Notes under the pieces: model-generated | Databases searched by the model: none | What the model was told of the DNA's origin: nothing | The model's input: only the letters and a program-made list of their open reading frames with translations | Part shown: positions 30,814 through 52,493 of the stretch, piece after piece | Layout: each line of letters starts with the position of its first letter | How positions within the stretch are numbered: the first letter of the stretch is position 1 | Made by a program: the position numbers and the translations under genes | Source of the DNA: Promethearchaeati archaeon | GTDB taxonomy: Archaea > Asgardarchaeota > Heimdallarchaeia > JABLTI01 | DNA length: 54,650 nucleotides | NCBI GenBank assembly: GCA_013166835.1 | Contig: JABLTI010000006.1 | Location: forward strand, 1-54,650 | Direction: 5' to 3'

Positions 30814-31944
30814 ATGAGAGAATCATGTCAAGAATTACTTAAAAAAGCCACTAAATTGCATAAGAGAAGCTCAAGAAAGGAACCTTTCGATGCTATTAAT
30901 GCCTATATAAGCTCAGGCGAATGTTTTAGTGAAAATGAAGAATACAGATTAGGACATGAAAACTATCTTGAAGCATTAAAACTGTTAGTGTTTTCTAAGA
31001 ATCTAAATGAATTGCTAAATCTAAATTCAGTTGAAGAAATTCTAAAAGTAACTCATCTAATACTCCCAATATTTGATTATAATCTGAATATGATTTCTGT
31101 AGAGTTAATAGATAAATTGATTGAAACTTTAGATTTATTGTTTAGTGGAAATTCCGAGAGTTTGTCGAACTCATTTTTAATAATGGAAACACAGTATCAA
31201 ATTTCTGAGAAAGCATACGATAATGGATTAATTGAAAAAGAGCAATTTACAGATATTCTAAATAGGACATCGAGAATTGCTGAGAAATTATACCAGAATG
31301 GTGGAAAATTACTGGATAAAACAAAATTTGGGAAAGCAAAAATATCATTGTCAATGGCTGTAATTTTGTTGCAATTAATCTCAGACCCTAAGATGGATCT
31401 AGCTTTTGAAATAAGTGCTAAAGCTAATCTTTTAGCTGGAAAATATGAAATAACACAACGAAAACATATTAAGGGATTGGAATCACTTTTAGAAGCTATA
31501 AAAATTTATAACACTCTAGATATGCATACAAATGCCAAAAATGCTTTAGCGATATTCAAGAAGTCTTTCAAATTAGCTCTGGAGGAAGTAGAAGGAGAAA
31601 ACGGAAGTGATGGTAGTAAATTAAAGAAACTTCTATTACTTGAGGAAGAATACAAAACACACAATGAAATAATTAAACAATACTCAAGTAAAAAAGAGAT
31701 TGTTGAAACAGCAATTAAGACTCCATATGTAAGATTACCTTATCCTAGGGAATATCAACAATTTGATGAAAATTCTAACAAGAATATACTCCTAAGAGAA
31801 AGGTATGCGTTAGAACAATCATTACAATCAATCCAAACAGCTTTTAGAGATGGTTTGATTGGTTCTGAAGACTATGCAAGACTTCTGCTTGGAATAAATA
31901 GAAATATCTACAAAGTAAAGAGATTATTAGAGGATAAGGAGTAA
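30814..31944 (+). CDS. unrecognised 376-aa helical (TPR/MIT-like) protein
   Basis: A 376-residue soluble helical protein. The first 60 residues form helix pairs with TPR- or MIT-like spacing (ELLKKATKLHKRSS followed by A-x3-Y and NYLEALKLL). The C-terminal 45 residues contain a short helical hairpin of the SHOCT type (LQSIQTAFRDGLIGSEDYAR). GAAGGG precedes the ATG. The next gene starts 8 nt after its stop, and both converge on the long propeller protein gene. No enzymatic motif. Possibly an adaptor of the neighbouring GTPase/AAA system. Confidence 0.65.
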   Translation: MRESCQELLKKATKLHKRSSRKEPFDAINAYISSGECFSENEEYRLGHENYLEALKLLVFSKNLNELLNLNSVEEILKVTHLILPIFDYNLNMISVELIDKLIETLDLLFSGNSESLSNSFLIMETQYQISEKAYDNGLIEKEQFTDILNRTSRIAEKLYQNGGKLLDKTKFGKAKISLSMAVILLQLISDPKMDLAFEISAKANLLAGKYEITQRKHIKGLESLLEAIKIYNTLDMHTNAKNALAIFKKSFKLALEEVEGENGSDGSKLKKLLLLEEEYKTHNEIIKQYSSKKEIVETAIKTPYVRLPYPREYQQFDENSNKNILLRERYALEQSLQSIQTAFRDGLIGSEDYARLLLGINRNIYKVKRLLEDKE

Positions 31945-31951
31945 GCTTCTC

Positions 31952-32527
31952 ATGTTTCATATTGATCAACCAATTCAAAGAAGTGAAGTAGAGAAATTTA
32001 TTTTGAATGTTGAAAAATTGGAAAAAGAATTCTTCTTCTTAAGAAAGAAAGAAATACAAAATATGATTGAAGTTATTAGTGGATCTGGTAGTATAGAGAA
32101 ATTCATAAACAGAATATTTGATCAATACATTCAAGTTGTTTTCTTAAAGAAAAATAATCAAAGAGCAACTATTCCTGTCAAAGAAGCATTATCTGAATTA
32201 GTGGATCAATCAAATGTTTTGCGTAAATCATTAAGAAGTAAGCATTTAGATTTAGCTTCAAAAAATACTCAGACTATTTTATATAGGATTGGATTTAACA
32301 TACAAAATTTGGATGAGGTCATCAAAGATTATTTAGTAATCTCAGAAATCTTTCAAAAAGTCTTGGATCGAATAAGAATTTACAGAAAAGAAAACAATAG
32401 CAAAAAAGTAGTTGAGCTCTCCAATTGGTTTTTTGAATTAAGTGGAGAATTAGCTTCAGATGGGGTTTTACATTTAGGGAAAATTCAGAATAGATATGAA
32501 TTAATGAAGAAAGCTAATAATTGGTAG
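31952..32527 (+). CDS. unrecognised 191-aa helical protein
   Basis: A 191-residue, strongly helical, basic protein without Cys, signal peptide or membrane segment. AAGGAG lies in the last codons of the preceding gene and sets the ATG at 31952, so the two genes form an operon. Heptad-like spacing in residues about 80-160 suggests a coiled coil or helical bundle. It ends 11 nt before the convergent 1107-aa gene. I cannot name a family. Confidence 0.6.
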   Translation: MFHIDQPIQRSEVEKFILNVEKLEKEFFFLRKKEIQNMIEVISGSGSIEKFINRIFDQYIQVVFLKKNNQRATIPVKEALSELVDQSNVLRKSLRSKHLDLASKNTQTILYRIGFNIQNLDEVIKDYLVISEIFQKVLDRIRIYRKENNSKKVVELSNWFFELSGELASDGVLHLGKIQNRYELMKKANNW

Positions 32528-32538
32528 GAGTAATTGAT

Positions 32539-35500
32539 TTAAGATATCTCTTTTCGCAAATTCTCTACAGTTCTTTTTAGGTAATCCCAGAAACATCTAA
32601 ACAGAATACCCATTGGTAATATTTTTACGTTGTCTATTTCATACTCGAATACATTAACCCCAGCATTAAGCATTGATTCAATCATATTGTCTATCTGCTC
32701 CATAATTAGGTGTTTTTGTGTTTGTTGGTTATAGACAACATCGACATTCATTTTTTTCATTGTACTTAGAACAGTCATAAATGAGTAATCCTTAAGATCC
32801 GTTGGAAGCATGGTTTGACTTAATTGAAATGGAAGATACATTGAACTTTCAGCTATGCATTTCTTGAATCTCTTTCTTTCCATTTTGAGGTAGCTTTCTA
32901 TTTTATCAATAATTTCCTTTATATTTATTGAAATAACCTTAGGTTTATGAACTGTGTCCAACCAAACGGGAATTTTCAACAACTCAATTTTCTTGAATTC
33001 TGCACTCTTTTGTATAGTTTCGTCAAAATAGGGTTGATATTCCATTACAAAAGTGAGTTCTGATTCCAAAGATGCTTTTTTAAGAGCTTTTATTTCATAA
33101 TTCTTATCAAACACCTTTTTTTCTTTAAAATTCAAATAATCTAAAGTAAGGGGATGTGTAGGTATGACTTTTATTTTATCTTTATCTTTATAACTGAAAT
33201 AGAACTTTGGATTCTTCAAGTAGCCCTCTAATACTTCAGTAAATACATGAATGTGACCAGATTTATCTAGATCTGTCAACAATAATTGTTCAGGTTTGGT
33301 TTCAATTTTCGTATTAAATTCCGGTGGGGAAAGGGATATCTTAATTTCAAATTCATCTATCGAAGTTTTCCGGTCTTCATATTCAAACCAAATTCGTAGT
33401 TTACCTGATTCACCATATTTATCTGTTATTGGTCGAATTAGAAAATCTTTTACAAAAGTTTCTCTTTGATCTATTGAAAATGGTTCTAATTCACTTTCAA
33501 CTTTAATATTCTGAGTTAGTGGTTCAATAAATGGTTTTATCTTTGATATACCGATATCATTTTTGGTTAATTCGATTCTTATATAGAGAGGAATTCCTAT
33601 TGGTGCTTTTTCTCCTATTAAAGCGTTGGGATCTGTGATTTTTATTGAATCAATCTCGAGATAAGGAAGTTTGTCTTTAACATGTACTATTAATTCAGGC
33701 ACTATATGAGTTCCTTCAGTTGTTACAATTTCTAAGGGGCCGATTTTGCTTTTCCCAATATTTTTTGGAACAATTTCAGCAAAATCAATTATTTCTGTTT
33801 GGTTAGCAAAAATTTCTCGATTTTTTAAATATTCGAAATAATTGCTCCCGAATTTTATTTTATCATCTACTCTTAATTTTACATTTTTTATTTTTGTATC
33901 AATTAGTGGATTTATTTTCACATGAAAACTATATCGTTTATCTTTTTCTAAACCTAATGATAAATTGAACTCCCTGTCATCTTCGATTGGTTGGATATCT
34001 GTTTTAACATGTAACAGTGTATGACACTTAAATCTGGGCAGAGTAATGATAGCTTGTTTAGAGACTAGACCTGTTTCTGTCACAAAATCATAGGATATTG
34101 GTAAAATGATATTATCATTTTGAATTTGAGATGTTTCCAAATATAAGCTAAATCTATAGGATTTTCCTGAACGAATTATATCTATTTCATTTTCAGCTTT
34201 TGGACCCAAATATATCTTAATACCTTTTTCTTCTTTAATTTGTGATAATTGATCTCTGTTGAATCTAAAATTGCAGATATTTACTGATGATAAATTAATA
34301 ATATTAAACGAAGTTTTAATTGGAGCATTTTGAATTAGGCTATCTGTAAAATCACTTGCATTTACTAATCTAAAATCACTAAATTCTAAACCCCTTGAAT
34401 TTTCCGTAATCTTAATTGGTTTTGTTATCTTTTCCTTTGTTTTCTTCACACGATGTTTTATCTCAAGCCTAATATTGAAAACATCTTCTTTTTTATTCAA
34501 ATCCTCAAGTTTCTTCTTTGTATTCTTTGCAAGAGTCTTCTGTTGCATTACCATTTCCATTAAATCAATTGATTCCACTATTTCTTCAAGTTTAATTATT
34601 TCTTGCTCTATTTCATTTTCATAATTCGCAAAACAATCTAAGCCATCTAAAAGATATAAATAGAAATCATTGATTTTTCTATTAGCTTTTTCTATATACT
34701 CTACTAGCAGACTTTCCGAGATTAATTCATAATTTGTTTGTACATAAAAGGGGTGAATGACAATTGATGGTTTTTGTGTATCTAAGAATCCAGAAGCTTT
34801 ATTTTGAAAAATTGCAAAAATAAGAGATATCCCTAATGGCTCATATACATGAGTGAGAATATCGAGTGGAACGATTTTAAATCCTTCATCAGGTGAAATA
34901 TCTTCTAGATTTGTAATATCAATAGGATCTGTTTTACTGGAAAGATCATTGAGAATCGAAATTTTCCCGATATCTTCTGATAAATCACCAATGACAATGG
35001 GAGTTGGTTTTTTATCAAATGATTGATGATGTGTAATTGCGTCAATTAGTTCTGGATTTATGTTAAGATTCTTTTTCCTAAACTCCTTACCATTGTAATT
35101 GAAGAGTATTGTACCTTCAGAAGTCTTACAAAGTATGTGAATGAAGCCAGCAGATTTATCCGGAACATAACTATAGATTTCCTCAATAAATGATTCTGTT
35201 GATACTGGGTCACATTTAAGATTAAATTGGCCATTCTTTATTTCTAGAATGCATAAAGAATATTCTCCACATAGAAGAATTTCAATTGTACCATCGTCTT
35301 TAACAGAAATAAAGTCACCATTCTCATAAAATGAGGGCAAATCATCTTTATAATATTGTGAAGACTCGAATACCTGAGTTACTTTTAGATTTTCTTCATC
35401 TTCAAAATCAATCTTCAAAAGTAGAATATTATCACTTATTAGTAAAACATAAGAAGTATCCCCTATTGTAAATGTTTTAATTTTTAACGGATTTTTTAGA

Positions 35501-35862
35501 TTCTCAATTTTTTTTCTTAATGTCAAGTTCAAATTTCTTTTAACTTTATCAAATTCATATATAGAAAGAGTATTAGAAGAGTCAATGAATAACAAATCTT
35601 CATCTTTGTGGTCTGATAATTTTATTCCACTTAAAACCTGGATTGGTTGTTTTAATTTTAGTAATGATTCCTGTTTAAAGCCCTCTGGGGTAATAATGAA
35701 ATATCCGAGTTCTAATTCTGATGCATTGTCATCTTGTACATACACTAATTCAGGAATTACTCCCCCGCCTTCTAAGTCAACTAAATCGAATAATGCTTTT
35801 TCAAAGGGAAGAGCAATAGTTTTTTCTTCCCATGTGAATTTTTTCAATATAGTTTTTCTCAT
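32539..35862 (-). CDS. 1107-aa beta-propeller / coiled-coil / Ig-like protein
   Basis: An 1107-residue protein with no signal peptide. Residues about 1-390 are beta-strand-rich with repeated hydrophobic four-strand blocks and loops consistent with a beta-propeller. About 395-475 is a helical coiled coil. About 500-980 contains several beta-sandwich blocks with Ig/CARDB-like character. The last 120 residues are helical. Propeller, coiled coil, Ig-like domain and helical tail in that order resembles the layout of trafficking coat subunits such as BBS proteins; this is architecture only. Its ATG overlaps the stop of the upstream GAP1-like gene (ATGA), so translation is coupled. Last gene of the minus-strand operon. 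Confidence 0.7.
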   Translation of the reverse strand: MRKTILKKFTWEEKTIALPFEKALFDLVDLEGGGVIPELVYVQDDNASELELGYFIITPEGFKQESLLKLKQPIQVLSGIKLSDHKDEDLLFIDSSNTLSIYEFDKVKRNLNLTLRKKIENLKNPLKIKTFTIGDTSYVLLISDNILLLKIDFEDEENLKVTQVFESSQYYKDDLPSFYENGDFISVKDDGTIEILLCGEYSLCILEIKNGQFNLKCDPVSTESFIEEIYSYVPDKSAGFIHILCKTSEGTILFNYNGKEFRKKNLNINPELIDAITHHQSFDKKPTPIVIGDLSEDIGKISILNDLSSKTDPIDITNLEDISPDEGFKIVPLDILTHVYEPLGISLIFAIFQNKASGFLDTQKPSIVIHPFYVQTNYELISESLLVEYIEKANRKINDFYLYLLDGLDCFANYENEIEQEIIKLEEIVESIDLMEMVMQQKTLAKNTKKKLEDLNKKEDVFNIRLEIKHRVKKTKEKITKPIKITENSRGLEFSDFRLVNASDFTDSLIQNAPIKTSFNIINLSSVNICNFRFNRDQLSQIKEEKGIKIYLGPKAENEIDIIRSGKSYRFSLYLETSQIQNDNIILPISYDFVTETGLVSKQAIITLPRFKCHTLLHVKTDIQPIEDDREFNLSLGLEKDKRYSFHVKINPLIDTKIKNVKLRVDDKIKFGSNYFEYLKNREIFANQTEIIDFAEIVPKNIGKSKIGPLEIVTTEGTHIVPELIVHVKDKLPYLEIDSIKITDPNALIGEKAPIGIPLYIRIELTKNDIGISKIKPFIEPLTQNIKVESELEPFSIDQRETFVKDFLIRPITDKYGESGKLRIWFEYEDRKTSIDEFEIKISLSPPEFNTKIETKPEQLLLTDLDKSGHIHVFTEVLEGYLKNPKFYFSYKDKDKIKVIPTHPLTLDYLNFKEKKVFDKNYEIKALKKASLESELTFVMEYQPYFDETIQKSAEFKKIELLKIPVWLDTVHKPKVISINIKEIIDKIESYLKMERKRFKKCIAESSMYLPFQLSQTMLPTDLKDYSFMTVLSTMKKMNVDVVYNQQTQKHLIMEQIDNMIESMLNAGVNVFEYEIDNVKILPMGILFRCFWDYLKRTVENLRKEIS

Positions 35863-38800
35863 CTGAAAGATGCTCCTCTCTTACTTAGCAATTGCCATTT
35901 TTCATTTAGTTTATCTACTTGGCTTATTGCCTTTTTCTTATGCTTCCATTTATCATCCTTAGTGAGCTTAATAGCCATATCTATGTAATTTTCAATGAAC
36001 TCATCAAAAATTCTATAGTAACCTTCATCTCTTTTCTTTTTAGTTAACCAGCTAAAGGCTCTTTGATAATATAACATAGTAATATCTGCAGCATTTTTGT
36101 TGATTAAAAGAACATCTAGGAAGTTCTTGGAGAATTTCAAGAAGCTTTTAGTTTGGTAAATGAAAATCTCAGACAGAAGCTGAGAAATTTTTATTTTCAT
36201 AGAATCATCATTGACTATTTTAGTGTAAACATCACTCACATGACGAGTTTGTCTCTGACTTTTACTAACATTTTCAAAAATATGTTCCAGATTATCATAG
36301 ATGTTCTTTTGAAGAGAGTACGCTCCTTTTACTATCTTCGATTCATTTTTATCTGGATCAAGTAAATTGTTGGTATTCTTCCAGAGATTCAGTAGATACT
36401 CAAGTCTTTCCAATGAGTAATTTGTACGTGAAATTTTCAATGATTCGTTGCTTATCTTCAATAAGGATTCACTTGGAACCAGATTTGAAATACCTGTTAG
36501 ACGATTGATTAAGGAACTCAGTTGCTTGAAATTATCATAATCCTCTTTTACAGCAAATTTTAAGAAATAGTCTAAAATTACAACGTAAGAATTTACATCT
36601 ATTTTTGTGCCTGGAGCAGGTGCTAATAGATAGTTTTCATAAAAGATTGACGCAATGAAACTATTTGTTTTATCTATGAACTTCTTTACATTGTCAAAAT
36701 TTTTCTTTAGAAATTTATCTAGACTGGTTTCTCTAAAGGTAACGACAAGGAGTTTTTCTAAATTTGTATTCTTAATTGTATTTGAATCAGAGGTTGCATC
36801 TGATAGTATGTTTAAGATGTTGTTAATTATATTTGCTCTGGCATTATTGCTTCTTGGACTATCATATTTACTATCTATTATTTTTACAGCTTCTATACTA
36901 TAAATCAAGAAATTTGCTAATCTATTTTGATTCTTTTCAGAATTTAAATATGAATTGAAGTCCTGACTGTATGTATCTAACAATCGAGAAATAAAGTCCG
37001 CAAAATTTATGACATAAATTTTATCTGAATGTTCATCTTTTAGAATTGATGAAAAGATTTGCTGACAAATCACATAATAGTTGATAAAAGGGCTTCTTCC
37101 AAAATATTCCTTTTTCTGTAAATCTTCTACGAATTTCTCAAACGTGTTTTGATTAAAAACATAACTTAGTCGTAATTTTATTACCTCTTCCATGTAAAAT
37201 TCTAATTCTTCTGGAGTAAGTTGCTTACCAAATAATTTCCAGAATATCTCTCTGTTAAGATTATTTAGATATTCATTAAGAGAATTACTTGTTTCCCGAT
37301 CTAATGATTGTGTTTCCTTAATATGATAGAGTAAACTGTTGTATTGTTTCAATATATTATAATCCTTATCCAGGAAGATTTTTGATCCAAATTCCAAAAG
37401 AATAGGTACATTTTCTGTTGAAATTTTATTTTTAATTTCATTAATTTGTTCTGTAATTTCATTTCTAGATAATGTATTAATTCTATATGACAATGCTTTC
37501 AATTGAATCTCTAACGCTTTGACTTTGTTTGGATATACAGAAGCTAAAATGAATAACAAATCACAGATTTGAGTAATAGCTACTTTGCTTTCTATTTCCT
37601 TGTCAAACAATATATATGAAATTTCAGCAATCTCGTTCATAATCCTGGAATATTGTTCACCTTCAAAATTAGAAATAAATGAAGTGAAGTCTCTTCTTGA
37701 ATTTGGAGAACTTACAAAAACATTGTAGAAATAGTTCTGAAAGATTACTTTCAAGAAATTTTGTAGTTGAGCTAAAGGTAAATCAAGAATCTTAAATGAA
37801 GCCTTAATAGCTTTAACCATTATTGATTCCCTATGTTTTTCATAGGTTTGAATATTAGTTAATTCTATTAGTTGTTGATATTGTTTTGATATAAAGCTAA
37901 AATCTCCACTATAGAAAATCAAATCTACAATTATTTCGAAAATCGCTAGATTCGGAGAAATCTTTAGAGAGTCTAAAATTCTATTGGTTTTTGTACTTAT
38001 ATCTAATCGAAGATCCTTTATCTTATCTAAAACTAGTTCCAAGATTTTACTTCGATTATCACTATGAATCTGTTCCATTGATAATAATTCAAGATATATA
38101 TCACTTAATTTATCGAAGGTATTTGCTTTTGAGAATACTGACCAATTAGCAATGTCAGAAAGAGTGATAAATTGTTGATTTTGATCAACATTCATTGCAG
38201 AAGATGATCGTATGTAATGAATCAAATGATTTTTCAGTTTTACAATATTATCCAGTAGGCCTGCATTAAGTGCATTTTGTATGCTTTTTCGTTCAAATTC
38301 AAATGCCCAACTAAACTGATCAATATAATTCTTTTCTGTAATTGTTCGTCTATATAGTGTGATTTTATCGAAGAGTTTATCATATGATGATTGTGTTTTC
38401 AATCTAATGGCTTCTTCAAGATATTTCTCACACACTACGCGATTCTCAAGGATAAATGCAATTTCTTTTGCTTTCAATAGGAATTGCGCATGAGATAATT
38501 TTCCTACATATTCTTTCAGTATTTTATCAAAACTCTTAGTGTAATCATTTAGCTCCTGTACTTTCAGCTCAGAGATGAAATTCGTTAAAGTTGTAGCTAA
38601 ATCATTTGTAGGTATACTTTCACCATCAATGAGTTCACCTTTACCACCAATGATAATAGTATTTATTGGAATTGATGCTGGTTTCTTAATGCAAGAACGA
38701 GGGGCAAATATTAAGTTAAATTCTGAAACATCCAGAGAGCTATAAGTAGCAGTTTGAATAAACGGATCAAAAAAGAAAGTTGCTATTCTTATTAAACCTC

Positions 38801-39407
38801 GAATATATTTTGGTAAAACCTTTAAGAAGGAATTAATTTCTGCTAATGGTTGAGTATCACCAGTTAGTATAACTATATTTTTCCCTTCTAATAAATAAGT
38901 AATAACTACTTTAACTAAATTGAGATTAAGTTTTGTTTTAATAGTCTCAAAATCATTAGATGTAAATTGAGAAATTTTACTAATTTCAGATATTTCAATA
39001 TCAATCATATCTTTATCGAGAAAATCATTACGTGTAAAAACATCTTTGAGATAATGTAAAACCAAAGGATTATTACCAATCAGATTATATTGTTCTTCTG
39101 TTAACACGATTGTATGAGTTAGAGTTCTCCCGGGCCTTCCATCATAATTTCTTCCTGCATCAATTACTTGACCAATTGCAACTCTATTGTCTTTTAATTT
39201 ATAACTCAGAATTGTATCTGTGATGGGAACTCGACAATATACCATTCCAAATGGATTTACTCCGTATGAATAACGCAAAATATGTAGTTTAGTTGCTTCA
39301 TCTATTCCTCTAGAAGATATGCTTGTAATTTGCTGCCCTGATTTTTGAGCAGTTTTTACTGAAGTAAAAAGCAAATAAGGTACATTAATTCTTTCATCTT
39401 TTGACAA
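35859..39407 (-). CDS. GAP1-like GTPase-associated protein
   Basis: An 1182-residue protein. The N-terminus has the pattern of the GAP1-N family of GTPase-associated proteins from bacterial conflict systems: a YLLFTS strand, GQQITSISSRG, then a conserved RPGRTLTH at 91-98 followed by a hydrophobic strand, matching the RPG-x3-TH/FxH signature I recall for that family. Residues about 150-260 continue with an LPKYIRG and APRS segment like the middle (GAP1-M) region, and the remaining 900 residues are an alpha-helical array. TTG start at 39407 with GAGGG 8 nt upstream. Directly downstream of two GTPases and coupled to the propeller protein, as expected for a GTPase partner. Confidence 0.65.
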   Translation of the reverse strand: MSKDERINVPYLLFTSVKTAQKSGQQITSISSRGIDEATKLHILRYSYGVNPFGMVYCRVPITDTILSYKLKDNRVAIGQVIDAGRNYDGRPGRTLTHTIVLTEEQYNLIGNNPLVLHYLKDVFTRNDFLDKDMIDIEISEISKISQFTSNDFETIKTKLNLNLVKVVITYLLEGKNIVILTGDTQPLAEINSFLKVLPKYIRGLIRIATFFFDPFIQTATYSSLDVSEFNLIFAPRSCIKKPASIPINTIIIGGKGELIDGESIPTNDLATTLTNFISELKVQELNDYTKSFDKILKEYVGKLSHAQFLLKAKEIAFILENRVVCEKYLEEAIRLKTQSSYDKLFDKITLYRRTITEKNYIDQFSWAFEFERKSIQNALNAGLLDNIVKLKNHLIHYIRSSSAMNVDQNQQFITLSDIANWSVFSKANTFDKLSDIYLELLSMEQIHSDNRSKILELVLDKIKDLRLDISTKTNRILDSLKISPNLAIFEIIVDLIFYSGDFSFISKQYQQLIELTNIQTYEKHRESIMVKAIKASFKILDLPLAQLQNFLKVIFQNYFYNVFVSSPNSRRDFTSFISNFEGEQYSRIMNEIAEISYILFDKEIESKVAITQICDLLFILASVYPNKVKALEIQLKALSYRINTLSRNEITEQINEIKNKISTENVPILLEFGSKIFLDKDYNILKQYNSLLYHIKETQSLDRETSNSLNEYLNNLNREIFWKLFGKQLTPEELEFYMEEVIKLRLSYVFNQNTFEKFVEDLQKKEYFGRSPFINYYVICQQIFSSILKDEHSDKIYVINFADFISRLLDTYSQDFNSYLNSEKNQNRLANFLIYSIEAVKIIDSKYDSPRSNNARANIINNILNILSDATSDSNTIKNTNLEKLLVVTFRETSLDKFLKKNFDNVKKFIDKTNSFIASIFYENYLLAPAPGTKIDVNSYVVILDYFLKFAVKEDYDNFKQLSSLINRLTGISNLVPSESLLKISNESLKISRTNYSLERLEYLLNLWKNTNNLLDPDKNESKIVKGAYSLQKNIYDNLEHIFENVSKSQRQTRHVSDVYTKIVNDDSMKIKISQLLSEIFIYQTKSFLKFSKNFLDVLLINKNAADITMLYYQRAFSWLTKKKRDEGYYRIFDEFIENYIDMAIKLTKDDKWKHKKKAISQVDKLNEKWQLLSKRGASFR

Positions 39408-41145: not shown

Positions 41146-41191
41146 ATTCCATCTAATTCCCGAAATTTAACGATATGATATATATGTTGAA

Positions 41192-41217
41192 TTCCACTTT
41201 AAAATTTTTCAGTGGAA
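41192..41217. promoter_or_regulatory. inverted repeat in the divergent control region of the cluster
   Basis: TTCCACT (41192-41198) and AGTGGAA (41211-41217) are perfect 7-bp arms around a 12-nt A/T spacer, with one further CCACT at 41222-41226. It lies between the divergently transcribed GTPase operon and the ESCRT-III-like/AAA operon and is a candidate shared operator. Confidence 0.45.
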
Positions 41218-41955: not shown

Positions 41956-42021
41956 ATATTATAAGCGATAAAAATGCATTGTTAGTTTGGTGTCAATTTT
42001 TAAATTTTGGAGGTTTGGAAT

Positions 42022-43784: not shown

Positions 43785-43793
43785 GTGAGTAAA

Positions 43794-44519: not shown

Positions 44520-45302
44520 ATGGCCGATAGATATAAAGAAAAAGCCGATGAATTAATTAAATTATATAATGAAGAAATTAAATTTTACGAATTCTGGTCA
44601 GATGAAACTTTACCAATTGAATTCTATGATATTGATAAGGGTAAATTGATAAAAGTTCCAATGGATTTTCAAATAAAGAGATTAAAACGAACTCTGAAAA
44701 CATTGAAATCAAAAAAGAAAATTAGTGATAAAGTAAAAACTCAACTAGAATCATCTCTGGAAAACATGGAGAAAGCTTTGTCAATTGTCAATAATATTGA
44801 TTCAGTCTTCAAAAGACTGTCAAAATTAGATGTTATTTTTCGAGGGTTACCTGACAAGAATAAATCAAAACTTGGAATAAAAACAATCGCAAAATTCCGG
44901 AGCACATTAATTGATAATATTAGATTACCAGAATTAGATCTCAAAGAACTTAAAGAAACAATTACTAAATTTGAGTCAAAATACAGTAAATTAAAGATAA
45001 GAGAGCGGAAGATTGAGAAAGGTGTGGGAGCTCTTGCGATTTCTGAAGAAGAAATGAATCAACTGGATTCATTGCTAGCTGAGATTGATGAGCATTTTGA
45101 AGGAATTGATTATGTTAGTATAATGGAAACAAGATTGTTTAAACTCAAAGAGAAAGAAGAGTTAGTCATTGATGTTCACGATATCCCAGATAATGTTTGT
45201 AGATCATTGCTTGATGAGCCAGGAAATGAGGATTTAAGATATAATAAGGAAGCGGGATTGATTCTTCTAAAGGAATCTGAATATAACACATATATGTTTT
45301 AG
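44520..45302 (+). CDS. unrecognised 260-aa helical protein
   Basis: A 260-residue mostly helical protein with long Lys/Leu-rich helices (about 60-180) and a short C-terminal segment (about 215-260) of mixed strand/helix character (LVIDVHDIPDNV, then LILLKESEY). No catalytic or binding motif is apparent. It sits between the AAA operon core and the subtilisin protease, 26 nt before the protease gene, so it could be a specific adaptor or substrate of that protease. Family unknown. Confidence 0.6.
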   Translation: MADRYKEKADELIKLYNEEIKFYEFWSDETLPIEFYDIDKGKLIKVPMDFQIKRLKRTLKTLKSKKKISDKVKTQLESSLENMEKALSIVNNIDSVFKRLSKLDVIFRGLPDKNKSKLGIKTIAKFRSTLIDNIRLPELDLKELKETITKFESKYSKLKIRERKIEKGVGALAISEEEMNQLDSLLAEIDEHFEGIDYVSIMETRLFKLKEKEELVIDVHDIPDNVCRSLLDEPGNEDLRYNKEAGLILLKESEYNTYMF

Positions 45303-45328: not shown

Positions 45329-47062
45329 ATGAAGTGGGTAAACAAATTAGACCCAACAGCATACAATGTAATGACAGTTCTAAATAATACCTTGCCAGAA
45401 GAAGAATTGATAGTTATTTTTAATACGAAACAAAAAGTGGATGATCTTAATAGTTATCTCGATCATAAGAAAGGAATTTCTAGTGTTGAATCCCTTGGTT
45501 TTAAATCCAAACACTTTGAAGAAATGGGTGCAAAAATAAGATTTGTGTTAGGTGATATTGGATTAGTTTCTTTCACAATTAAGGCTAAAGAAGTTAAGAA
45601 TCAAATTTTCGAGAATTTCACAGATATTGTTACTAGTATTGGTGTTGGAGAAGATTCACATTATGTTCTCAATGACTCCCGGAAAATGGTTATGGGAGAA
45701 ACCCCTACCTCATTTGATGGTTCAGGAACTAGAGTTGCAGTTGTAGATTCCGGAGTTGATACTCACCCAGATCTAAATGTTATTGCTCATTTTGATTTTT
45801 CAAGTGATGCGAGCAATCCTGAATTTGCTAAAAAAGATATTTGTGGTCATGGTACTCATGTTGCAGGGATAATTTCAGGGAAAGGTGTGAAGAATTCTGA
45901 AATAAAAGGAGTAGCTATTGGAGCTGAAATAATTAATGCTAAGGGATTAAATGCGATGGGTATAGGATCCAATGATGGTATTTTTGCAGCTATTACAAAA
46001 GCATGTAAAGACCATAAGGCAGATGTAATAAATCTTAGTCTTGGTTCTCCAGAGAAGCACTATAATATGAGTAGCTCAATGAAGGAAACATTTGTACATG
46101 CAGATGATTCAAAAAATGATTTTTACAAAAATATACACCAACAATATCCATCTGTTGTGATTGTTGCATCAGCTGGAAACAATGGTCCTGAATATAAAAC
46201 TCTAAATGTTCCTGGAGCATTTGAAGAGGTAATTTGTGTTGGTAGCGTCAATAAAGATAAAAAAATGTCTTATTTTAGCTCTAGAGGTTCCAACAATCAT
46301 AATAAAACCAAACCAGATGTTGTCGCTCCCGGTGGAAGTATTTTAGCAACAAAATCTAAATATGAAGCTGCTTCATCAAAATGCGAATTCTATACAGTGA
46401 AATCAGGAACATCCATGTCATGTCCACACGTGTCTGGTTTAGCAGCTTTATTATGTAAAGCTATAAAATCTCAAAATCTAAAATCACTAACAAATACTTT
46501 TGATAGACACACTTATATCAAGAAAATTATGATGAATTCTGCGATAAATCTACAATTTGATGCTAATACACAAGGAGCAGGTCTAATTAATTTTCCTGCA
46601 GCCAAAAAACTAATTGAAAGCAAGAAAGAAGTTGTGGAAGTTGTCTTGGCAGCTCCAGATCTGAGATATGAAATGGATGATTCTGTGTTTGATAAAAGTT
46701 TTACAATGTTTAAAGATATCATTCCTTTTTCAAGTCAAAGCAATGAAAATCTTGCTGAAATAGCTAACATGGTAACTAGCATTAATATAATTCAAACTAA
46801 ATATGACCTGAGTTCTTTAGGAGTACTTGGTAATAAGTTAATGCAAGCATCAATAAAAAATCCCTGTAAGGAAAATTTATTTGTGCTTAGATTTAATATT
46901 CCAATTTTTAGAATTAGAACTGAAATTGAAGAACTTCTCCCATTAGAAGAAAATTATGCTAATATAACTAATAAATATACAATTAGAAAAGCAATGAAAA
47001 ACGTGATTGCTTCAATAGATTCGATAACTAATATTGAAAATAAAAAATTAATCTTATATTAA
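45329..47062 (+). CDS. subtilisin-family (S8) serine protease without signal peptide
   Basis: A 577-residue S8 protease. The N-terminal 125 residues resemble an inhibitory propeptide and lack any signal sequence. The catalytic set is complete: Asp140 in VAVVDSGVD, His174 in GHGTHVAG, oxyanion Asn284 in SAGNNG, and Ser362 in GTSMSCPHVSG. The last 160 residues form a helical C-terminal extension with no recognised domain. AAAGGTGA precedes the ATG. A cytosolic zymogen in an operon with an AAA ATPase suggests that it is activated in the cell as an effector or processing protease. Confidence 0.88.
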   Translation: MKWVNKLDPTAYNVMTVLNNTLPEEELIVIFNTKQKVDDLNSYLDHKKGISSVESLGFKSKHFEEMGAKIRFVLGDIGLVSFTIKAKEVKNQIFENFTDIVTSIGVGEDSHYVLNDSRKMVMGETPTSFDGSGTRVAVVDSGVDTHPDLNVIAHFDFSSDASNPEFAKKDICGHGTHVAGIISGKGVKNSEIKGVAIGAEIINAKGLNAMGIGSNDGIFAAITKACKDHKADVINLSLGSPEKHYNMSSSMKETFVHADDSKNDFYKNIHQQYPSVVIVASAGNNGPEYKTLNVPGAFEEVICVGSVNKDKKMSYFSSRGSNNHNKTKPDVVAPGGSILATKSKYEAASSKCEFYTVKSGTSMSCPHVSGLAALLCKAIKSQNLKSLTNTFDRHTYIKKIMMNSAINLQFDANTQGAGLINFPAAKKLIESKKEVVEVVLAAPDLRYEMDDSVFDKSFTMFKDIIPFSSQSNENLAEIANMVTSINIIQTKYDLSSLGVLGNKLMQASIKNPCKENLFVLRFNIPIFRIRTEIEELLPLEENYANITNKYTIRKAMKNVIASIDSITNIENKKLILY

Positions 47063-47077: not shown

Positions 47078-47248
47078 ATGATAAATATCCCACATAAATA
47101 TATGGAATATTTACAATGGTTGATGAATCCAGATCAAGTGATTCAAATTATGGGTATTTCACTTTGGGTATGTATTGGAGGATGTCATGCTACGGTTATA
47201 CTTGGATTTACTTTTAACGTAAAGTCCATAAAAAAATTTAAAAAATAG
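47078..47248 (+). CDS. 56-aa single-helix membrane protein
   Basis: A frame of 56 codons starting MINIPHKYMEYLQW with a strong GGTGGAGG ribosome-binding site just upstream and only 15 nt after the protease stop. Residues about 21-45 are hydrophobic with Cys and Gly (WVCIGGCHATVILGFTF) and are followed by a Lys-rich tail (KSIKKFKK), a typical small membrane protein with a positive-inside C-terminus. Operon position suggests it anchors or regulates the protease or the membrane sensors that follow. Confidence 0.6.
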   Translation: MINIPHKYMEYLQWLMNPDQVIQIMGISLWVCIGGCHATVILGFTFNVKSIKKFKK

Positions 47249-47295: not shown

Positions 47296-49428
47296 GTGAG
47301 GTATATTAGATTAAGAATTATAATAGTCAATTTGTTTTTTACATCAACTTTTTTGCTATTTCTTGTATTATCAATGAACACAAATACTCGAATTCAAAAT
47401 GCTTCTGCTGAGAGTTCTCTTTTATATTCTGAGGATTTTTCGTCAGATGTTTTTTCAAGCTCTGATTGGGTTCGAACAGATAATAGTGTGTTCGTTGACA
47501 CAACTAATGGTTGGTTGCATATTTCCTCTGATACTGATTATGATGATTATGCTAGCTTTGTATTAAGTTGGGAATCCTCATTTACTATTATAATTCGATC
47601 CAGATCTAATGGTGGGAGAGGTTATCGAATGCCAGCATTTGAATTTTATAATAATCAAGAAAAAACTTTTTATGTTACGTGCATCGATGAGTGGATTTTC
47701 CCCCAATCAAATGGTTCCATTAATTATCTTCCACCTAGTGAGAATATTTGGTGGGATATCAAAATCGAATTTAACTCTGATTCTCAAATTTTGTTTGCAA
47801 AGAATATTAGTACAAATGCTTGGAACAAAATTTCAGAAAATAATATTGAAAATCTTGATTTTACTTCTCTAAGAATACGTCAAAATTGGGATGCCACTAT
47901 TGATATTGATTTTATTGAAATATATATTGAAGACCCATTCCAATTTTATGAACCTTTTAATAGTAATGACGTTTGGATTAGTTCTAATTGGACACGCAGT
48001 GGTGATTATTATTCAATTGATGAAAAAAATGGTTGGCTACATAAAAGCTTAGCAGGACATTATGAAGATTCAGTTGATTATTCTATCTCACTTCCATTTC
48101 CATTCACAATTGAATATAGAGGTCGATTAACTAGTGGTGGAAGAGATTATACATTCCCAGCATTTCATTTTGTAACTAAAGATAGTCTCTCATTTTCTTT
48201 TGTATATGGATATTCTCAAAAGGGTCAATGGCGATTTATAGGGGAATATGTTGATTCCTCTTTAGGTCCTCATTCAGAGGGAATATGGTGGTCTGCTAAG
48301 ATTGAGTTTAATATAAATAATCAAACATTATATTCAAAATCTGATTCAGCTACAGAATGGTCTTTTGTAGCCTTTAGAGAGTATAATATCAGTGATGGCA
48401 TTGTTTCTTTTGGTTTTCATGGTTCATGGGATGCAATAATTGATATAGATTATGTTGCAATTGATCTTTCATTATCCCATAACCCACTTTTACAAAATAA
48501 TGACAAAAGCTTTCTAGATCTATACTTAATATTTGTACCATTGGCAGCAATTATTTCAGTAATTATTATAGTATTATTCCTTTATTTTATGCTAAAAGGT
48601 GAAACTAGATATGCGAAAAGAACAACGAGAAGAGAAAGAAGAGAACTAAAAAATTTTAAAAAACAAGAAAGAAAAAATGCTAGATTTGTTAGTGAAAAAT
48701 TAAGACTCGTTGAAAAACAAGAGAGAAAAGATGCTAGATTAGCAAAAAGTAAAGCTCAACAAGACAAGAAATTATCTGAGAAATTATTGAAAGATGAAAT
48801 GAAAGCATTAGACAGGGCTGAACAAGTATTAGTCCAAATCTTATATCAGACTAGAAGAAAGAATTTCTTGATTACAATCTCAGATCTAATTGCAAGAAGC
48901 GGAGTTAAGCAAGATTTGGTTGTTTCGATTATTAACGAGCAGTTCGTTAGACAACATGATATTATAATAGATGGGACTACAATTGTTTTCCCCAAAGAAA
49001 AAGAGAAGTTTATATATAATTCTAGAAAAATTGTTGAAAGGGTATTAGAAAAAATAAGTTTGGATACCTATACAGTATCATTGGATGATTTCGGTCAAAT
49101 GACTAAAATAAATCCAGAATTTTTAGATTTAGTCCTCATTAGTGAAATTCAAAACAAATACAGATTCATTGTTCAAAACAATATGATTATTTTTACAGAT
49201 AAGCAAGCTATCTATGATGTTATTTATCATGTTAAAACACTTCTAACTATATACTATGATAAGAAAGAAGAAACAAAAGAGACATATGATCTACTCACTC
49301 AAGCAGAAATTGAGTTGGTATCAGCAATAAAGAATGCTAAAGAACTAGGATTCGCAGATGAAGTAGAAGAACTCGAATTTCATCTGAAACAAGTAAGAAG
49401 GCACATTAAAGAATTCGATGTTGACTAA
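47296..49428 (+). CDS. secreted-domain membrane protein: tandem lectin-like ectodomain, TM helix, winged-helix cytoplasmic tail
   Basis: A 710-residue protein. A signal-like helix (about 7-27) precedes two tandem beta-sandwich domains of concanavalin/LamG type (about 45-220 and 221-405), which repeat GWLH, GGRGY/GGRDY, a PAFEF/PAFHF strand, IWW-x-IKIEF/IWWSAKIEF and a WDA-I-DID end motif. One transmembrane helix (about 407-431) leads to a basic coiled coil, two winged-helix-like units (about 504-640), and a three-helix module ending KEFDVD. GTG start at 47296 with AAAGGAG upstream. The tail is homologous to that of the next protein. Likely an outside-to-inside sensor or adhesion receptor. Confidence 0.75.
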   Translation: MRYIRLRIIIVNLFFTSTFLLFLVLSMNTNTRIQNASAESSLLYSEDFSSDVFSSSDWVRTDNSVFVDTTNGWLHISSDTDYDDYASFVLSWESSFTIIIRSRSNGGRGYRMPAFEFYNNQEKTFYVTCIDEWIFPQSNGSINYLPPSENIWWDIKIEFNSDSQILFAKNISTNAWNKISENNIENLDFTSLRIRQNWDATIDIDFIEIYIEDPFQFYEPFNSNDVWISSNWTRSGDYYSIDEKNGWLHKSLAGHYEDSVDYSISLPFPFTIEYRGRLTSGGRDYTFPAFHFVTKDSLSFSFVYGYSQKGQWRFIGEYVDSSLGPHSEGIWWSAKIEFNINNQTLYSKSDSATEWSFVAFREYNISDGIVSFGFHGSWDAIIDIDYVAIDLSLSHNPLLQNNDKSFLDLYLIFVPLAAIISVIIIVLFLYFMLKGETRYAKRTTRRERRELKNFKKQERKNARFVSEKLRLVEKQERKDARLAKSKAQQDKKLSEKLLKDEMKALDRAEQVLVQILYQTRRKNFLITISDLIARSGVKQDLVVSIINEQFVRQHDIIIDGTTIVFPKEKEKFIYNSRKIVERVLEKISLDTYTVSLDDFGQMTKINPEFLDLVLISEIQNKYRFIVQNNMIIFTDKQAIYDVIYHVKTLLTIYYDKKEETKETYDLLTQAEIELVSAIKNAKELGFADEVEELEFHLKQVRRHIKEFDVD

Positions 49429-49601
49429 TATATGAAGAAGAAATGAATAATATTAATTTATCAATATGCACACAAACTGAAATGAAATAAAGTAGTAACT
49501 TCTTGATCTATTTTCCCAGAAAAATCTTTTTTAATCATGAAACAAAGTATTTACTGTTTTTAGAGTTAAAACAAAATTTTCTTAGAAATGGAGAGAAAAA
49601 T

Positions 49602-52493
49602 ATGGCAAACAAAATCATTGATGTTCTCTTTCAGATACAGGCTCTTCTAGATGCTGACATAGTCAAGCATTTGCAGCAAACTTCCATGGCTGTTTGCATT
49701 GTTGGTTGTGTTGGATTATTTGCTATGTCTCTTTATATGATAATTGAGGATTATGATCTCCCTCCGGGATGTGGTATTTTTGCAGCTATTGGCTTTGCTC
49801 TTTGGTGTTCTTTTGCTGTTGGTTATGGATTGTATGCATATATGAGCTTAGGAATGACTAATGATATCAGAAATATATTAATCACATCCCATGTTCTTCT
49901 TGGAGTTAATGCAATCTTCATGGGGATTTTTTACGATCGCGCAGAATATGATTGGGTTATAGGTTTTATCGCTTCTGTTATCACACTTTTTGGGTCTTAT
50001 ATTCTTGCAGTTATTGTATTTGTCTTTTTCTTGGATTGGACATTATCATTAACTATACTCTGCATTCTAATAGTTTTTGCTGGTTTAATTATTCTAGATG
50101 TTTTTGGCAGGACAGATTATTGGGAAAAGAGTTTTCGTGTTTCTGTAGGGATAATTTCTCTCTTAGTTGGAATAGGTAGTTTAGTAACTGGTTATCTTGG
50201 TTTATCGCCAAGTTTTACCTTTAATATATCACTAGGAGTGGATATATCATTGACAGTTGGGGGAGTTCTAGTGATAATTATGGGATCACTCTTACTGGGA
50301 GAAGCTTCTACAGAATTTGATTATAAACCAGGTTATACTGCTGGTGCTACAATTGGTTATACTACGCTATTTAGTGGATTAGCTCCTTGGATTATTACAA
50401 TGGTGAATCAAATAAGACAAACACAAATCAACAGCTTCGTTCTAACTTTAACAATTCCACTTTCATTTATTTTACTAGCAGTAATAATCATAATTGGAAT
50501 TGCAGGTTATAATGCGTGGGAACTAAGTGGTTTCTTTGTTTTTGGTTTCTTTTTACTGTTTTCAAGCATTGCATGCTTAATTTGTAGTATTTTAGGTTTC
50601 CATGGTGTAATATCAATGGGTGGATACTTGACTCCTAAAATAATGTTAACGTTTTTTGGTTCAATAATTTCGATAATTGGCAGCATATTCATTGGTCAAG
50701 GATTATTTGGAGATGTTAGTAATAGATCTATTAGTGATCCAGCAATATCAATAACTTGGATGTCGATACTATGTACTTTTATTAGTGTGGGCATTTCAGT
50801 TTGGATACCTTATATCTTGAAACTCGTTGGGCAACCAATTGATTCTATTTTTTATATTACTATAGGAGTTCCGACAGGAATTTTAACTTCATTTGGTATA
50901 ATAGTACCTTTAGCTGCAACTCGGAGAAATAGAATTGATAGAAGGAATGATAGGCGTGCAAGCAGAAGAGAGGCAGATTTAATCAGACAGAAACAACAAC
51001 AGGAATCACAATATTGGTCTAATGCTAGTTCTCTTGTTAAAGGGGCTATTGAAAGATCTAAAGCTAGAAGATACGAAACTACTCTAGCTAACCTTAAACG
51101 CGGTAGTGGAGTTGAGAAACAGGATATTGCTAAGGTTATTCAAGATAAGTTTACTTTAACTTATAATATCACCCTTGATGGAGAAAATGTAACATTCAAT
51201 GAAGAAAAGGAAAAATTCATGGAGAAAGCAAGAAAGGCTCTTGAAAAAACTATTGATAAGGCAAGTAAAGAAGTCTTTACTATTTCTTTGGAGGAGATCA
51301 AAGCACAAACAAAAATTGATGTTGAGATTCTTGAGACTTTTATTACTACAAAACTCATTGAGAAATATAGCATTCAATTTGAAGATGGTATAATCACCTT
51401 CAAAGGTAAAGAAGGAATAATGGCAATAATTGAGCAAGTAGAGAATTTGCTTGATAGATTCTATGATATTGACGCAGAAACTCCTGATGCTTATGAACTT
51501 TTAACTGCTGCTAAAATCGAACTCGAAGCTGCCATAGATAACGCACATCATTTAGGTGCTGATGCTGAAATGGAAGATTGTAAGAGATTACTTAGAACTG
51601 TTAATAAACACATTAAAGAGTTTGATATTGAGGAAGAGGTAATTGAAGAGATTGTTGAAGAAGTTCCAGAAGAAATACCTATAGATAGTACTGTTCAAGA
51701 TGCTATTGAACATGTTGAAGCGCTTTTGAATGAATACTATGACAAGAATGTAGAGACAAAAGAGACATATGAATTACTTACTAAAGCAGAAATTGAGTTG
51801 AAATCAGCAATAAAACATGCTACAGATATTGGTTTTGGTAATGAGACAAATAAATTAGAATTTCTTTTAAAAACAGTTAGAAAACTCCTTGATGAGTTTG
51901 AATTAGAGGAGGAGGAAAAGGAAGAAGAGATACCAGAAGAACCTATTGAAGCTGAAGAAAATGAAGATGAACCTTTAGAAATCGAAGAAGAAGAAATCCT
52001 TGGAGAAATCGAAGAAAAGTTAGAAGAGATTGAAGCTGAATCTGAAAGTAAGGATGAATTCCAAGATTTTGGAATCGTAACATTCGAAGAGAAGGAAATC
52101 CCATCTGATGATGATAAGCAAATTGAGGGAACAAGTGAATACGAGGAATATGGAGTTATTCCAGAAGAATCCAGTATAGATTTAGATTCCCCAGATATTG
52201 ATACTAGTGTTGAACCAGAATTAGATGATGAAAACTCATTGGATGTTGTAGAGGTAATTGAACAATATGATGAGAAAATAAAACAGGTTGAATCTTTGCT
52301 TGAAGAATACAAGAATGCTAAATCAAGAAATGAAAGTACTGCTTCCTTCTTACCAGAAGCACAAGCAATTCTAAACGATGCAATAATACTGGCAACTCGT
52401 ATAAATAGTCCAGAGAAATTGAATATTTGTATGGAATTATCTCTTGAAATAGAAAGTTGTATTGATGAATATAAGAAGTCAAAGGAAGATTAA
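49602..52493 (+). CDS. polytopic membrane protein with winged-helix and repeated helical-module tail
   Basis: A 963-residue protein from the ATG at 49602 (GGAGAG 6 nt upstream; upstream in-frame TTG lacks a ribosome-binding site). The first 440 residues hold about thirteen hydrophobic segments. A strongly basic segment (about 442-460) follows, then two winged-helix-like units (about 470-600) and a three-helix module at about 608-670, repeated at about 700-765 with an acidic Glu-rich linker to about 885 and a degenerate third copy at the C-terminus. The winged-helix and module parts match the tail of the upstream gene, with near-identical DNA in places. No transporter family recognised. Confidence 0.72.
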   Translation: MANKIIDVLFQIQALLDADIVKHLQQTSMAVCIVGCVGLFAMSLYMIIEDYDLPPGCGIFAAIGFALWCSFAVGYGLYAYMSLGMTNDIRNILITSHVLLGVNAIFMGIFYDRAEYDWVIGFIASVITLFGSYILAVIVFVFFLDWTLSLTILCILIVFAGLIILDVFGRTDYWEKSFRVSVGIISLLVGIGSLVTGYLGLSPSFTFNISLGVDISLTVGGVLVIIMGSLLLGEASTEFDYKPGYTAGATIGYTTLFSGLAPWIITMVNQIRQTQINSFVLTLTIPLSFILLAVIIIIGIAGYNAWELSGFFVFGFFLLFSSIACLICSILGFHGVISMGGYLTPKIMLTFFGSIISIIGSIFIGQGLFGDVSNRSISDPAISITWMSILCTFISVGISVWIPYILKLVGQPIDSIFYITIGVPTGILTSFGIIVPLAATRRNRIDRRNDRRASRREADLIRQKQQQESQYWSNASSLVKGAIERSKARRYETTLANLKRGSGVEKQDIAKVIQDKFTLTYNITLDGENVTFNEEKEKFMEKARKALEKTIDKASKEVFTISLEEIKAQTKIDVEILETFITTKLIEKYSIQFEDGIITFKGKEGIMAIIEQVENLLDRFYDIDAETPDAYELLTAAKIELEAAIDNAHHLGADAEMEDCKRLLRTVNKHIKEFDIEEEVIEEIVEEVPEEIPIDSTVQDAIEHVEALLNEYYDKNVETKETYELLTKAEIELKSAIKHATDIGFGNETNKLEFLLKTVRKLLDEFELEEEEKEEEIPEEPIEAEENEDEPLEIEEEEILGEIEEKLEEIEAESESKDEFQDFGIVTFEEKEIPSDDDKQIEGTSEYEEYGVIPEESSIDLDSPDIDTSVEPELDDENSLDVVEVIEQYDEKIKQVESLLEEYKNAKSRNESTASFLPEAQAILNDAIILATRINSPEKLNICMELSLEIESCIDEYKKSKED

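What the first reader, a model, noticed from the sequence alone, without database searches (positions are those of the whole stretch)
30814..52493. Candidate multi-component GTPase / MIT-AAA / subtilisin / membrane-sensor system
Two GTPases, a GAP1-N-like protein and a propeller/Ig protein run one way, and two ESCRT-III-like proteins, a Vps4-like ATPase, helical partners, a cytosolic subtilisin, a small membrane protein and two winged-helix-tailed membrane proteins run divergently from a shared control region. Bacterial conflict systems pair GAP1 proteins with double GTPases and effector proteases, but I know of none with an ESCRT/Vps4-like unit or membrane sensors. Grouping rests on tight spacing, overlapping genes and shared domains; cluster-level function is inference.
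Basis: partly seen in the sequence, partly recalled or inferred. Interest (0 to 1): 0.92.

Follow-up and report, generated by a model that had tools for sequence, protein, structure and literature searches.

The report
Mobile GTPase-gated ESCRT and protease cluster
A block of about 15 genes, inserted recently into this archaeon's chromosome and found in the same order in another archaeon of the same class, joins a GTPase switch known from bacterial conflict systems to an ESCRT-type membrane-remodelling machine and a protease; I found no description of this combination, which may be a membrane-based defence or damage response.

Summary
The same genes recur in the same order and orientation in G011 (same class). 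A shorter core recurs in G092, and a rearranged form in G206; contigs are fragmented in G188 and G169. Five congeners, and a second contig of this MAG, carry the empty site: 22 kb (30499-52532) is inserted between two genes that are otherwise neighbours.

Each half belongs to a known family. One half is a pair of DO-GTPases, a GAP1-N2 protein and a propeller/Ig-type protein (Kaur et al. 2020). The other half is two distant ESCRT-III proteins, a MIT-AAA-Vps4_C ATPase outside the canonical Vps4 clade, and a TPR protein ending in an ESCRT-I steadiness box. It also holds a catalytically intact cytosolic subtilisin and membrane receptors. The two halves co-occur across 228 genomes of the phylum (p = 2e-6).

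Neither the conflict-system paper nor the archaeal ESCRT survey describes this combination. I read it as a mobile, GTP-gated ESCRT/protease response to invasion or membrane damage. The switch-plus-ESCRT anatomy is shown; the function is inferred. One relative carries a DISARM/DpdK-like PLD domain, which leans towards defence. Related loci swap in E1/E2/JAB ubiquitin-type genes.

The parts
30499..30813 (.). left junction of the insertion; holds a 63-aa N-terminal remnant of an amidohydrolase (30609-30800)
   Evidence: between TM gene stop 30498 and first cluster gene; remnant matches N-termini of chlorohydrolase-type families, E 0.002-0.005
30814..31944 (+). TPR/helical protein ending in an ESCRT-I (Vps23) steadiness box
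   Evidence: conserved in G011 (42%) and G092 (28%); C-terminal 60 aa vs Vps23_core of relatives hhalign 37 vs shuffled max 24 and 18, E about 1e-7
31952..32527 (+). 191-aa helical protein, unknown
   Evidence: syntenic homologue only in G011 (28%)
32539..35862 (-). large propeller/Ig-type scaffold or sensor (third component); homologue in G092 has a C-terminal PLD nuclease-like domain
   Evidence: 38% full-length to G011; FG-GAP repeats in G188 homologue, PLDc_2 4.6e-16 in G092 homologue; AF2 low confidence, beta-rich N-half, coiled coil, beta sandwiches
35859..39407 (-). GAP1-like protein (GAP1-N2 domain N-terminal)
   Evidence: Pfam PF20013 2.5e-4 here and 7e-5 to 1.7e-3 in homologues; GAP1-M 2.7e-4 in G188 homologue
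39449..40252 (-). DO-GTPase B
   Evidence: PF19975 1.8e-4; motifs GPNGAGKT, DLSGE, SKGD, SSLG; pairs with G011_B 100/99
40267..41145 (-). DO-GTPase A
   Evidence: PF19975 4.9e-7 over cut-off; motifs GTSSSGKT, DFAGE, TKTD, SSLG; pairs with G011_A 96/96
41146..41337 (.). divergent intergenic region between the GTPase and ESCRT operons
   Evidence: same divergent layout in G011 (171 bp) and G092 (355 bp)
41338..41955 (+). distant ESCRT-III family protein a
   Evidence: family A2 vs canonical Snf7 profile
42007..42594 (+). distant ESCRT-III family protein b (68% to G011)
   Evidence: AF2 helices 15-52, 59-97, 103-148, 157-175, 185-194
42630..43784 (+). MIT-AAA-Vps4_C ATPase, active-site and pore-loop motifs intact
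   Evidence: monophyletic with 10 other system ATPases 100/99, separate from canonical Vps4/CdvC and Cdc48
43785..44441 (+). helical partner 1
   Evidence: 46% to G011, positional equivalents in G206, G070, G092
44520..45302 (+). helical partner 2
   Evidence: 33% to G011, positional equivalents in G206 and G070
45329..47062 (+). cytosolic subtilisin with a system-specific helical C-terminal domain
   Evidence: PF00082 4e-50; triad intact, no TM; C-terminal domain found only in G000, G011, G070, G077, G188, G206
47078..47248 (+). 56-aa one-TM protein
   Evidence: ORF in sequence printed; hydrophobic stretch
47296..49428 (+). receptor-like protein: signal/TM, extracellular part, TM 404-437, cytosolic tail shared with next gene
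49503..52493 (+). polytopic membrane protein (about 11 TM) with the same cytosolic tail
   Evidence: tail also in G011 next to the cluster (35%)
27257..30498 (.). left flank of insertion site (GHMP kinase, 139 aa, two TM paralogues), not part of the system
   Evidence: same order in five congeners, 46-94% identity
52533..54357 (.). right flank (PRTase, CGI-121, THUMP), not part of the system
   Evidence: directly follows the left flank in five congeners and in contig G000:C194

Best explanation
The cluster is one mobile, horizontally moving system in which a conflict-type GTPase switch controls a dedicated membrane-remodelling machine. Shown by sequence: the two DO-GTPases, the GAP1-N2 protein, the ESCRT-III pair, the MIT-AAA ATPase, the steadiness-box protein, the intact subtilisin and the membrane receptors, and their inheritance as a block. 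Inferred: (1) the GTPase pair sits on GAP1 and the large propeller/Ig protein at the membrane; (2) the receptors with shared cytosolic tails, and/or the propeller/Ig protein, sense an invader or a breach of the envelope and flip the GTPases; (3) this licenses the ESCRT-III pair to polymerise at the site, with the TPR-steadiness-box protein as the ESCRT-I-like adaptor; (4) the MIT-AAA ATPase engages the ESCRT-III tails and threads and disassembles the polymer or its clients; (5) the subtilisin destroys or activates clients, or the host cell, as effector. The most likely purpose is defence against viruses or other mobile elements, or an abortive or repair response to envelope damage. I give about 0.9 that it is one system with a GTPase-gated ESCRT core, and about 0.55 to 0.6 that its purpose is conflict or defence.
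For: Block inheritance: the same gene order in G011, a core in G092, and a rearranged set in G206 with 3 GTPases, GAP1, propeller protein, helical protein, MIT-AAA, two helicals and subtilisin. Empty site in five congeners and in a second contig of the MAG. GC 0.29-0.32 against 0.34-0.35 in the left flank, and an amidohydrolase scar. Co-occurrence of the ATPase clade and DO-GTPases across 228 genomes, p = 2e-6. GTPases A and B inherited in parallel. ESCRT identity by three independent profile tests with shuffle controls: ESCRT-III, steadiness box, MIT. The subtilisin's own C-terminal domain is confined to genomes with the ATPase or the GTPase. Precedent: DO-GTPase/GAP1 systems are conflict systems with membrane components and swappable effectors (PMC7159879). 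In bacteria a DO-GTPase family protein is linked to the pspFABC operon, whose PspA is an ESCRT-III superfamily member (PMC11237479). The G092 homologue of the large protein carries a PLD domain closest to the defence proteins DpdK (6e-9) and DrmC of DISARM (3e-6).
Against: No experiment exists. No classical toxin or nuclease is present in the window's own copy. Effector variability, a hallmark of conflict systems, rests on one PLD example plus the E1/E2/JAB loci. Patchy ESCRT gene families are common in Asgard archaea without being defence (PMC10936438). GAP1-C and the FNIII protein of the bacterial systems were not found. Foldseek on the ESCRT-III model gave nothing significant, and the propeller/Ig model is poor.
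Confidence: 0.6

Rival explanations
1. An accessory sorting or vesicle system rather than defence. The ESCRT half makes vesicles, the propeller/Ig protein is an adaptin- or coat-like cargo adaptor, the DO-GTPases act as Arf/Rab-like coat regulators, and the subtilisin processes cargo.
For: Archaeal Halo_adaptin ESCRT loci pair a Vps4-like ATPase and a PspA-like protein with two proteins made of an N-terminal propeller and IG-like domains, read as protein sorting (PMC10936438). The window model has the same order of strands, coil, beta sandwiches and helices, and its weak fold hits are propeller proteins including BBSome subunits. Steadiness box present.
Against: Sporadic presence with a precise empty site in congeners is unusual for a core trafficking pathway. 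The switch is of the conflict-system family. One relative has a defence-type PLD domain. Fold hits have TM-scores near 0.1.
Confidence: 0.25
2. Primarily an ATP-dependent proteolytic machine: the AAA ring unfolds clients and feeds the subtilisin, as in a two-gene IetAS-type defence pair. The ESCRT-III-like proteins and helical proteins are adaptors or scaffolds, not membrane polymers.
For: AAA and S8 genes travel together in G000, G011, G206 and G070. Generic matches to IetA (3.5e-22) and IetS (1.8e-15). Pore-loop KYVG intact.
Against: Far below NCBIfam cut-offs for the Iet pair: 68 of 510 and 40 of 900 bits. MIT domain and ESCRT-III partners present. G092, G171 and G172 have the ATPase and ESCRT-III proteins with no subtilisin in the fetched stretch.
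Confidence: 0.12
3. Two unrelated operons or an assembly chimera that happen to lie together.
For: The right flank (PRTase, CGI-121) is only 40-53% identical to congeners, against 84-95% for most of the left flank in the nearest congener; MAG contamination is 6.8%.
Against: The same junctions recur in an independent genome, G011. Synteny resumes exactly on the right side. Genes overlap or abut within each operon. Co-occurrence p = 2e-6.
Confidence: 0.03

Closest known systems
DO-GTPase/GAP1-N2 conflict systems (Kaur et al. 2020, eLife, PMC7159879)
   Same: Two paralogous DO-GTPases with DxxGE, GAP1 gene downstream, a large third protein with beta-sandwich-type repeats, membrane components, swappable effectors.
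   Different: Archaeal host; no zinc ribbons or TM on the window GTPases; propeller/Ig-type protein in place of FNIII; ESCRT module in place of the tubulin, HSP70 or kinase themes.
Archaeal ESCRT loci, above all Halo_adaptin (Makarova et al. 2024, mBio, PMC10936438)
   Same: MIT-AAA (or Vps4-like AAA) next to ESCRT-III genes; steadiness box; propeller/Ig-type large protein.
   Different: Extra to the cell's canonical ESCRT (Snf7 at G000:C147 and C221, canonical Vps4 at G000:C125); separate ATPase clade; adds DO-GTPase/GAP1 and subtilisin. The words subtilisin and protease do not occur in that paper.
PspFABC operons with YcjX-type DO-GTPase (PMC11237479)
   Same: DO-GTPase family protein genetically linked to an ESCRT-III superfamily protein (PspA) in membrane stress.
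   Different: No MIT-AAA, GAP1 or subtilisin is described there for those operons; among GTPase families the window proteins matched only DO-GTPase 1/2.
IetAS (Gao_Iet) anti-phage pair
   Same: AAA ATPase plus S8 peptidase.
   Different: Scores far below cut-offs; many more components.

Membership tests
DO-GTPase/GAP1-N2 system | Two paralogous GTPases with conserved Glu in Walker B | tested here: met
   Pfam DO-GTPase1 4.9e-7 and 1.8e-4; DFAGE and DLSGE
DO-GTPase/GAP1-N2 system | GAP1 with N, M and C domains, encoded downstream of the GTPase | tested here: inconclusive
   GAP1-N2 in window and 4 homologues, all under the Pfam cut-off; GAP1-M only in the G188 homologue; GAP1-C not seen; gene order fits
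DO-GTPase/GAP1-N2 system | FNIII-repeat third component | tested here: not met
   No FNIII match; beta-rich, FG-GAP and BatD/DUF11-like matches in homologues instead
DO-GTPase/GAP1-N2 system | Transmembrane components and variable effectors | tested here: met
   47296-49428 and 49503-52493; subtilisin in several loci, PLD in G092
ESCRT-III/Vps4 system | MIT-AAA-Vps4_C ATPase | tested here: met
   MIT hhalign 42.7 vs shuffled max 31.2; Vps4_C in 7 of 11 members, best 1.4e-7
ESCRT-III/Vps4 system | AAA domain in the canonical Vps4/CdvC clade | tested here: not met
   Separate clade 100/99; AAA domain scores higher to Cdc48 D2 of other genomes
ESCRT-III/Vps4 system | ESCRT-III (Snf7-fold) partner proteins | tested here: met
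   hhalign 40.8 vs max 21.2 of 150 shuffles and 17.6 reversed, co-linear over helices 1-2; not reached by Pfam Snf7; Foldseek not significant
ESCRT-III/Vps4 system | ESCRT-I steadiness box component | tested here: met
   hhalign 37 vs shuffled max 24 and 18
ESCRT-III/Vps4 system | ESCRT-III polymerises on membranes and is remodelled by the ATPase | not testable with these tools
   needs biochemistry
IetAS | IetA ATPase and IetS peptidase over curated cut-offs | tested here: not met
   68.2 of 510 and 40.3 of 900 bits

The most novel reading that the evidence does not exclude
An ESCRT-based prokaryotic immune system: a conflict-type GTPase switch calls up a dedicated, mobile ESCRT-III/AAA machine plus protease to seal, isolate or destroy membranes or cells under attack. 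This would mean ESCRT machinery was already recruited to immunity outside eukaryotes.
Probability: 0.45. Interest if true: 0.93.

Novelty: new variant of a known kind. Interest (0 to 1): 0.82.

Why it matters
Eukaryotic ESCRT repairs membranes and meets viruses, but how it became tied to GTPase signalling, ubiquitin and immunity is open. Here, in archaea of what appears to be the Asgard phylum, a second and mobile ESCRT set is coupled to a bacterial-type conflict GTPase module. Sister loci couple the same pieces to E1/E2/JAB, one of them with a UFC1-like E2. That makes the recruitment of ESCRT and ubiquitin-type modules to conflict systems directly testable with a small, defined set of genes.

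Tried and rejected
Genome-wide scan with the AAA alignment in genome contigs returned almost only generic Cdc48-type ATPases. PDB sequence searches with the ESCRT-III and GTPase profiles gave only coiled coils and generic P-loops. Foldseek of the ESCRT-III model: no significant hit, though Vipp1, PspA, Loki CHMP4-7 and CHMP2A-3 are among the top 50. Propeller/Ig model too poor for fold claims. Helical partners at 43785 and 44520 are not ESCRT-III by the same test: scores do not exceed shuffles. The G167 match to the subtilisin C-terminal domain lies on what looks like a release factor and is chance. Most weak GTPase matches in both phyla look like unrelated P-loop proteins. IetAS membership rejected. 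Of the six strong hits with the subtilisin tail profile, five built the profile and are not independent evidence; only the G077 hit is, and a random genome would have met it by chance about 1 time in 20.
Full report
What is there. The window is contig C130 of a 3.56-Mb MAG. Between 30814 and 52493 lie two plus-strand genes at the left end, then a minus-strand operon of four genes, a 192-bp divergent region, and a plus-strand operon of nine genes. Spacing is tight; two gene pairs overlap or abut. Pfam recognises DO-GTPase1/2, GAP1-N2, MIT, AAA and Peptidase_S8 and nothing else with confidence.

It is a discrete insertion. In five congeners (G058, G063, G059, G056, G061) the genes GHMP kinase, 139 aa, TM, TM are followed, about 80 bp later in G058, by PRTase, CGI-121 and THUMP. 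In the window the order is identical except that 30499-52532 sits between the second TM gene and the PRTase. A second contig of the same MAG, C194, carries the empty version. In the nearby congener G058 most of the left flank is 84-95% identical, while PRTase and CGI-121 on the right are 40-53% identical across the congeners and THUMP 47-74%, so a stretch of the right flank probably arrived with the cluster. GC falls from 0.34-0.35 (left) to 0.29-0.32 in the cluster and 0.28 on the right, and an amidohydrolase N-terminal remnant marks the left junction. Searches with the GAP1 protein and GTPase A found neither in any of the eight congeners.

It recurs as a block. G011, from another family of the class, has the same genes in the same order and orientation, 28-68% identical, with different flanks. 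G092 keeps TPR-steadiness-box protein, propeller/Ig, GAP1, two GTPases, divergent region, two ESCRT-III, MIT-AAA and a helical protein. G206 has three GTPases, GAP1, propeller protein, helical protein, MIT-AAA, two helicals and subtilisin on one contig; in G188 and G169 the contigs are broken. Across 228 genomes of the phylum the ATPase clade (11 genomes) and DO-GTPases (12) share six genomes, p = 2e-6. ATPases without a GTPase in the fetched stretch occur in G070, G171, G172, G082 and G083.

The switch half. GTPases A and B carry GxxxxGKT, DxxGE, [TS]KxD and SSLG; A pairs with G011 A and B with G011 B, so both paralogues are old and kept together, as expected of a dimer. The GAP1 assignment rests on several independent sub-threshold hits with the same domain position, plus GAP1-M in one homologue. 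Kaur et al. describe this trio (GTPases, GAP1, and an FNIII-repeat protein) as the core of conflict systems, with tubulin, HSP70 or kinase modules as variable parts. The large protein of the window is propeller-like by secondary structure; the G092 version ends in an HKD phospholipase-D domain nearest DpdK and DISARM DrmC.

The ESCRT half. The ATPase has MIT, Walker A/B, pore loop and arginine finger, and Vps4_C in 7 of 11 members. It forms its own clade, 100/99, outside canonical Asgard Vps4 and CdvC and outside Cdc48; this genome has a canonical Vps4 (C125) and Snf7 genes (C147, C221) elsewhere. The paired helical proteins match real Snf7 profiles at 40.8 against at most 21.2 in shuffles that keep the heptad pattern. 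AlphaFold gives the expected run of helices with moderate confidence, and Foldseek is not significant. The 30814 protein ends in a steadiness box. The two helical partners are not ESCRT-III by the same test.

The protease and receptors. The subtilisin has an intact triad, no TM segment, and a C-terminal helical domain found only in six genomes, all with the ATPase clade or a DO-GTPase. Five of those built the profile; G077 is the one out-of-sample hit, and it has a DO-GTPase-like gene, a GAP1-like gene and E1/E2/JAB-type genes on another contig. Two membrane proteins share a cytosolic tail that recurs beside the cluster in G011.

Mechanism. I propose that the receptors and/or the propeller/Ig protein sense invasion or envelope damage, the GTPase pair with GAP1 sets the threshold, and the output is local ESCRT-III assembly handled by the MIT-AAA, with the subtilisin as executor. 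The parts list, co-inheritance and mobility are shown; sensing, gating, polymerisation and effector action are inferred. Defence is favoured by the conflict-family switch, mobility, and the PLD variant. Sorting or repair is the main rival, because the large protein resembles the 'adaptin-like' proteins of Halo_adaptin ESCRT loci. A bacterial precedent for tying a DO-GTPase to an ESCRT-III superfamily protein is the psp operon with a DO-GTPase gene.

Novelty. Neither PMC7159879 nor PMC10936438 describes GAP1/DO-GTPase with ESCRT in the passages read or found by term, and surveys of Asgard or archaeal defence (PMC11291487, PMC12988326) do not mention it. Subscription papers were not searchable. 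Each half is of a known kind and the union is new, so I file it as a new variant. In Thermoproteota only one of 398 genomes has a convincing GTPase of this type, with a GAP1-N gene but no ESCRT genes beside it, so among the archaea searched the ESCRT coupling was seen only in the window's phylum.

Noticed in passing
L064:5471-14894 (G070:C84): A sister locus joins a ThiF-type E1, a UFC1-like E2 and a JAB peptidase to the same ESCRT-III-like protein, MIT-AAA, steadiness-box TPR protein and subtilisin, without a GTPase in the fetched stretch.
   Followed up: partly
L250:266-8712 (G078:C96), L220 (G077:C46), L247 (G077:C207): Related loci pair a DO-GTPase-like protein and a GAP1-N-like protein with a HEAT-ubiquitin fusion (PF00240 9e-10), E1, E2-like and JAB genes: a GTPase-linked ubiquitin-type system.
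   Followed up: partly
L105:3-977 and 3172-3915 (Lokiarchaeota Bin_342): A relative of the system ATPase lies close to a different small GTPase gene, so the ATPase may have been paired with GTPases more than once.
   Followed up: no
L281:1720-3825 (G594:C8): One Thermoproteota genome has a DO-GTPase next to a GAP1-N protein without any ESCRT genes on its short contig.
   Followed up: partly
window 52533-53807: PRTase and CGI-121 just right of the insertion are only 40-53% identical to congeners, while most of the left flank is 84-95% identical to a near one; replacement together with the insertion is likely.
   Followed up: partly
G000:C194 (L274): The MAG holds a second contig with the empty site, 85-94% identical to the window's flanking TM genes, so the bin probably mixes strains.
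   Followed up: yes
L056:8170-15754, L057:17627-19900, L208, L221:2-7502: Large secreted-looking propeller proteins with related C-terminal regions crowd around the clusters in G011 and G092 and near a GTPase gene in G206; possible matching sensors.
   Followed up: no
window 28935-30498: Two tandem paralogous multi-TM proteins of unknown family, conserved next to GHMP kinase throughout the genus.
   Followed up: no
window 45329-47062 with 42630-43784: Generic matches of this AAA/S8 pair to IetA/IetS models suggest that some 'Gao Iet' calls in Asgard genomes (PMC11291487) could be this system.
   Followed up: no
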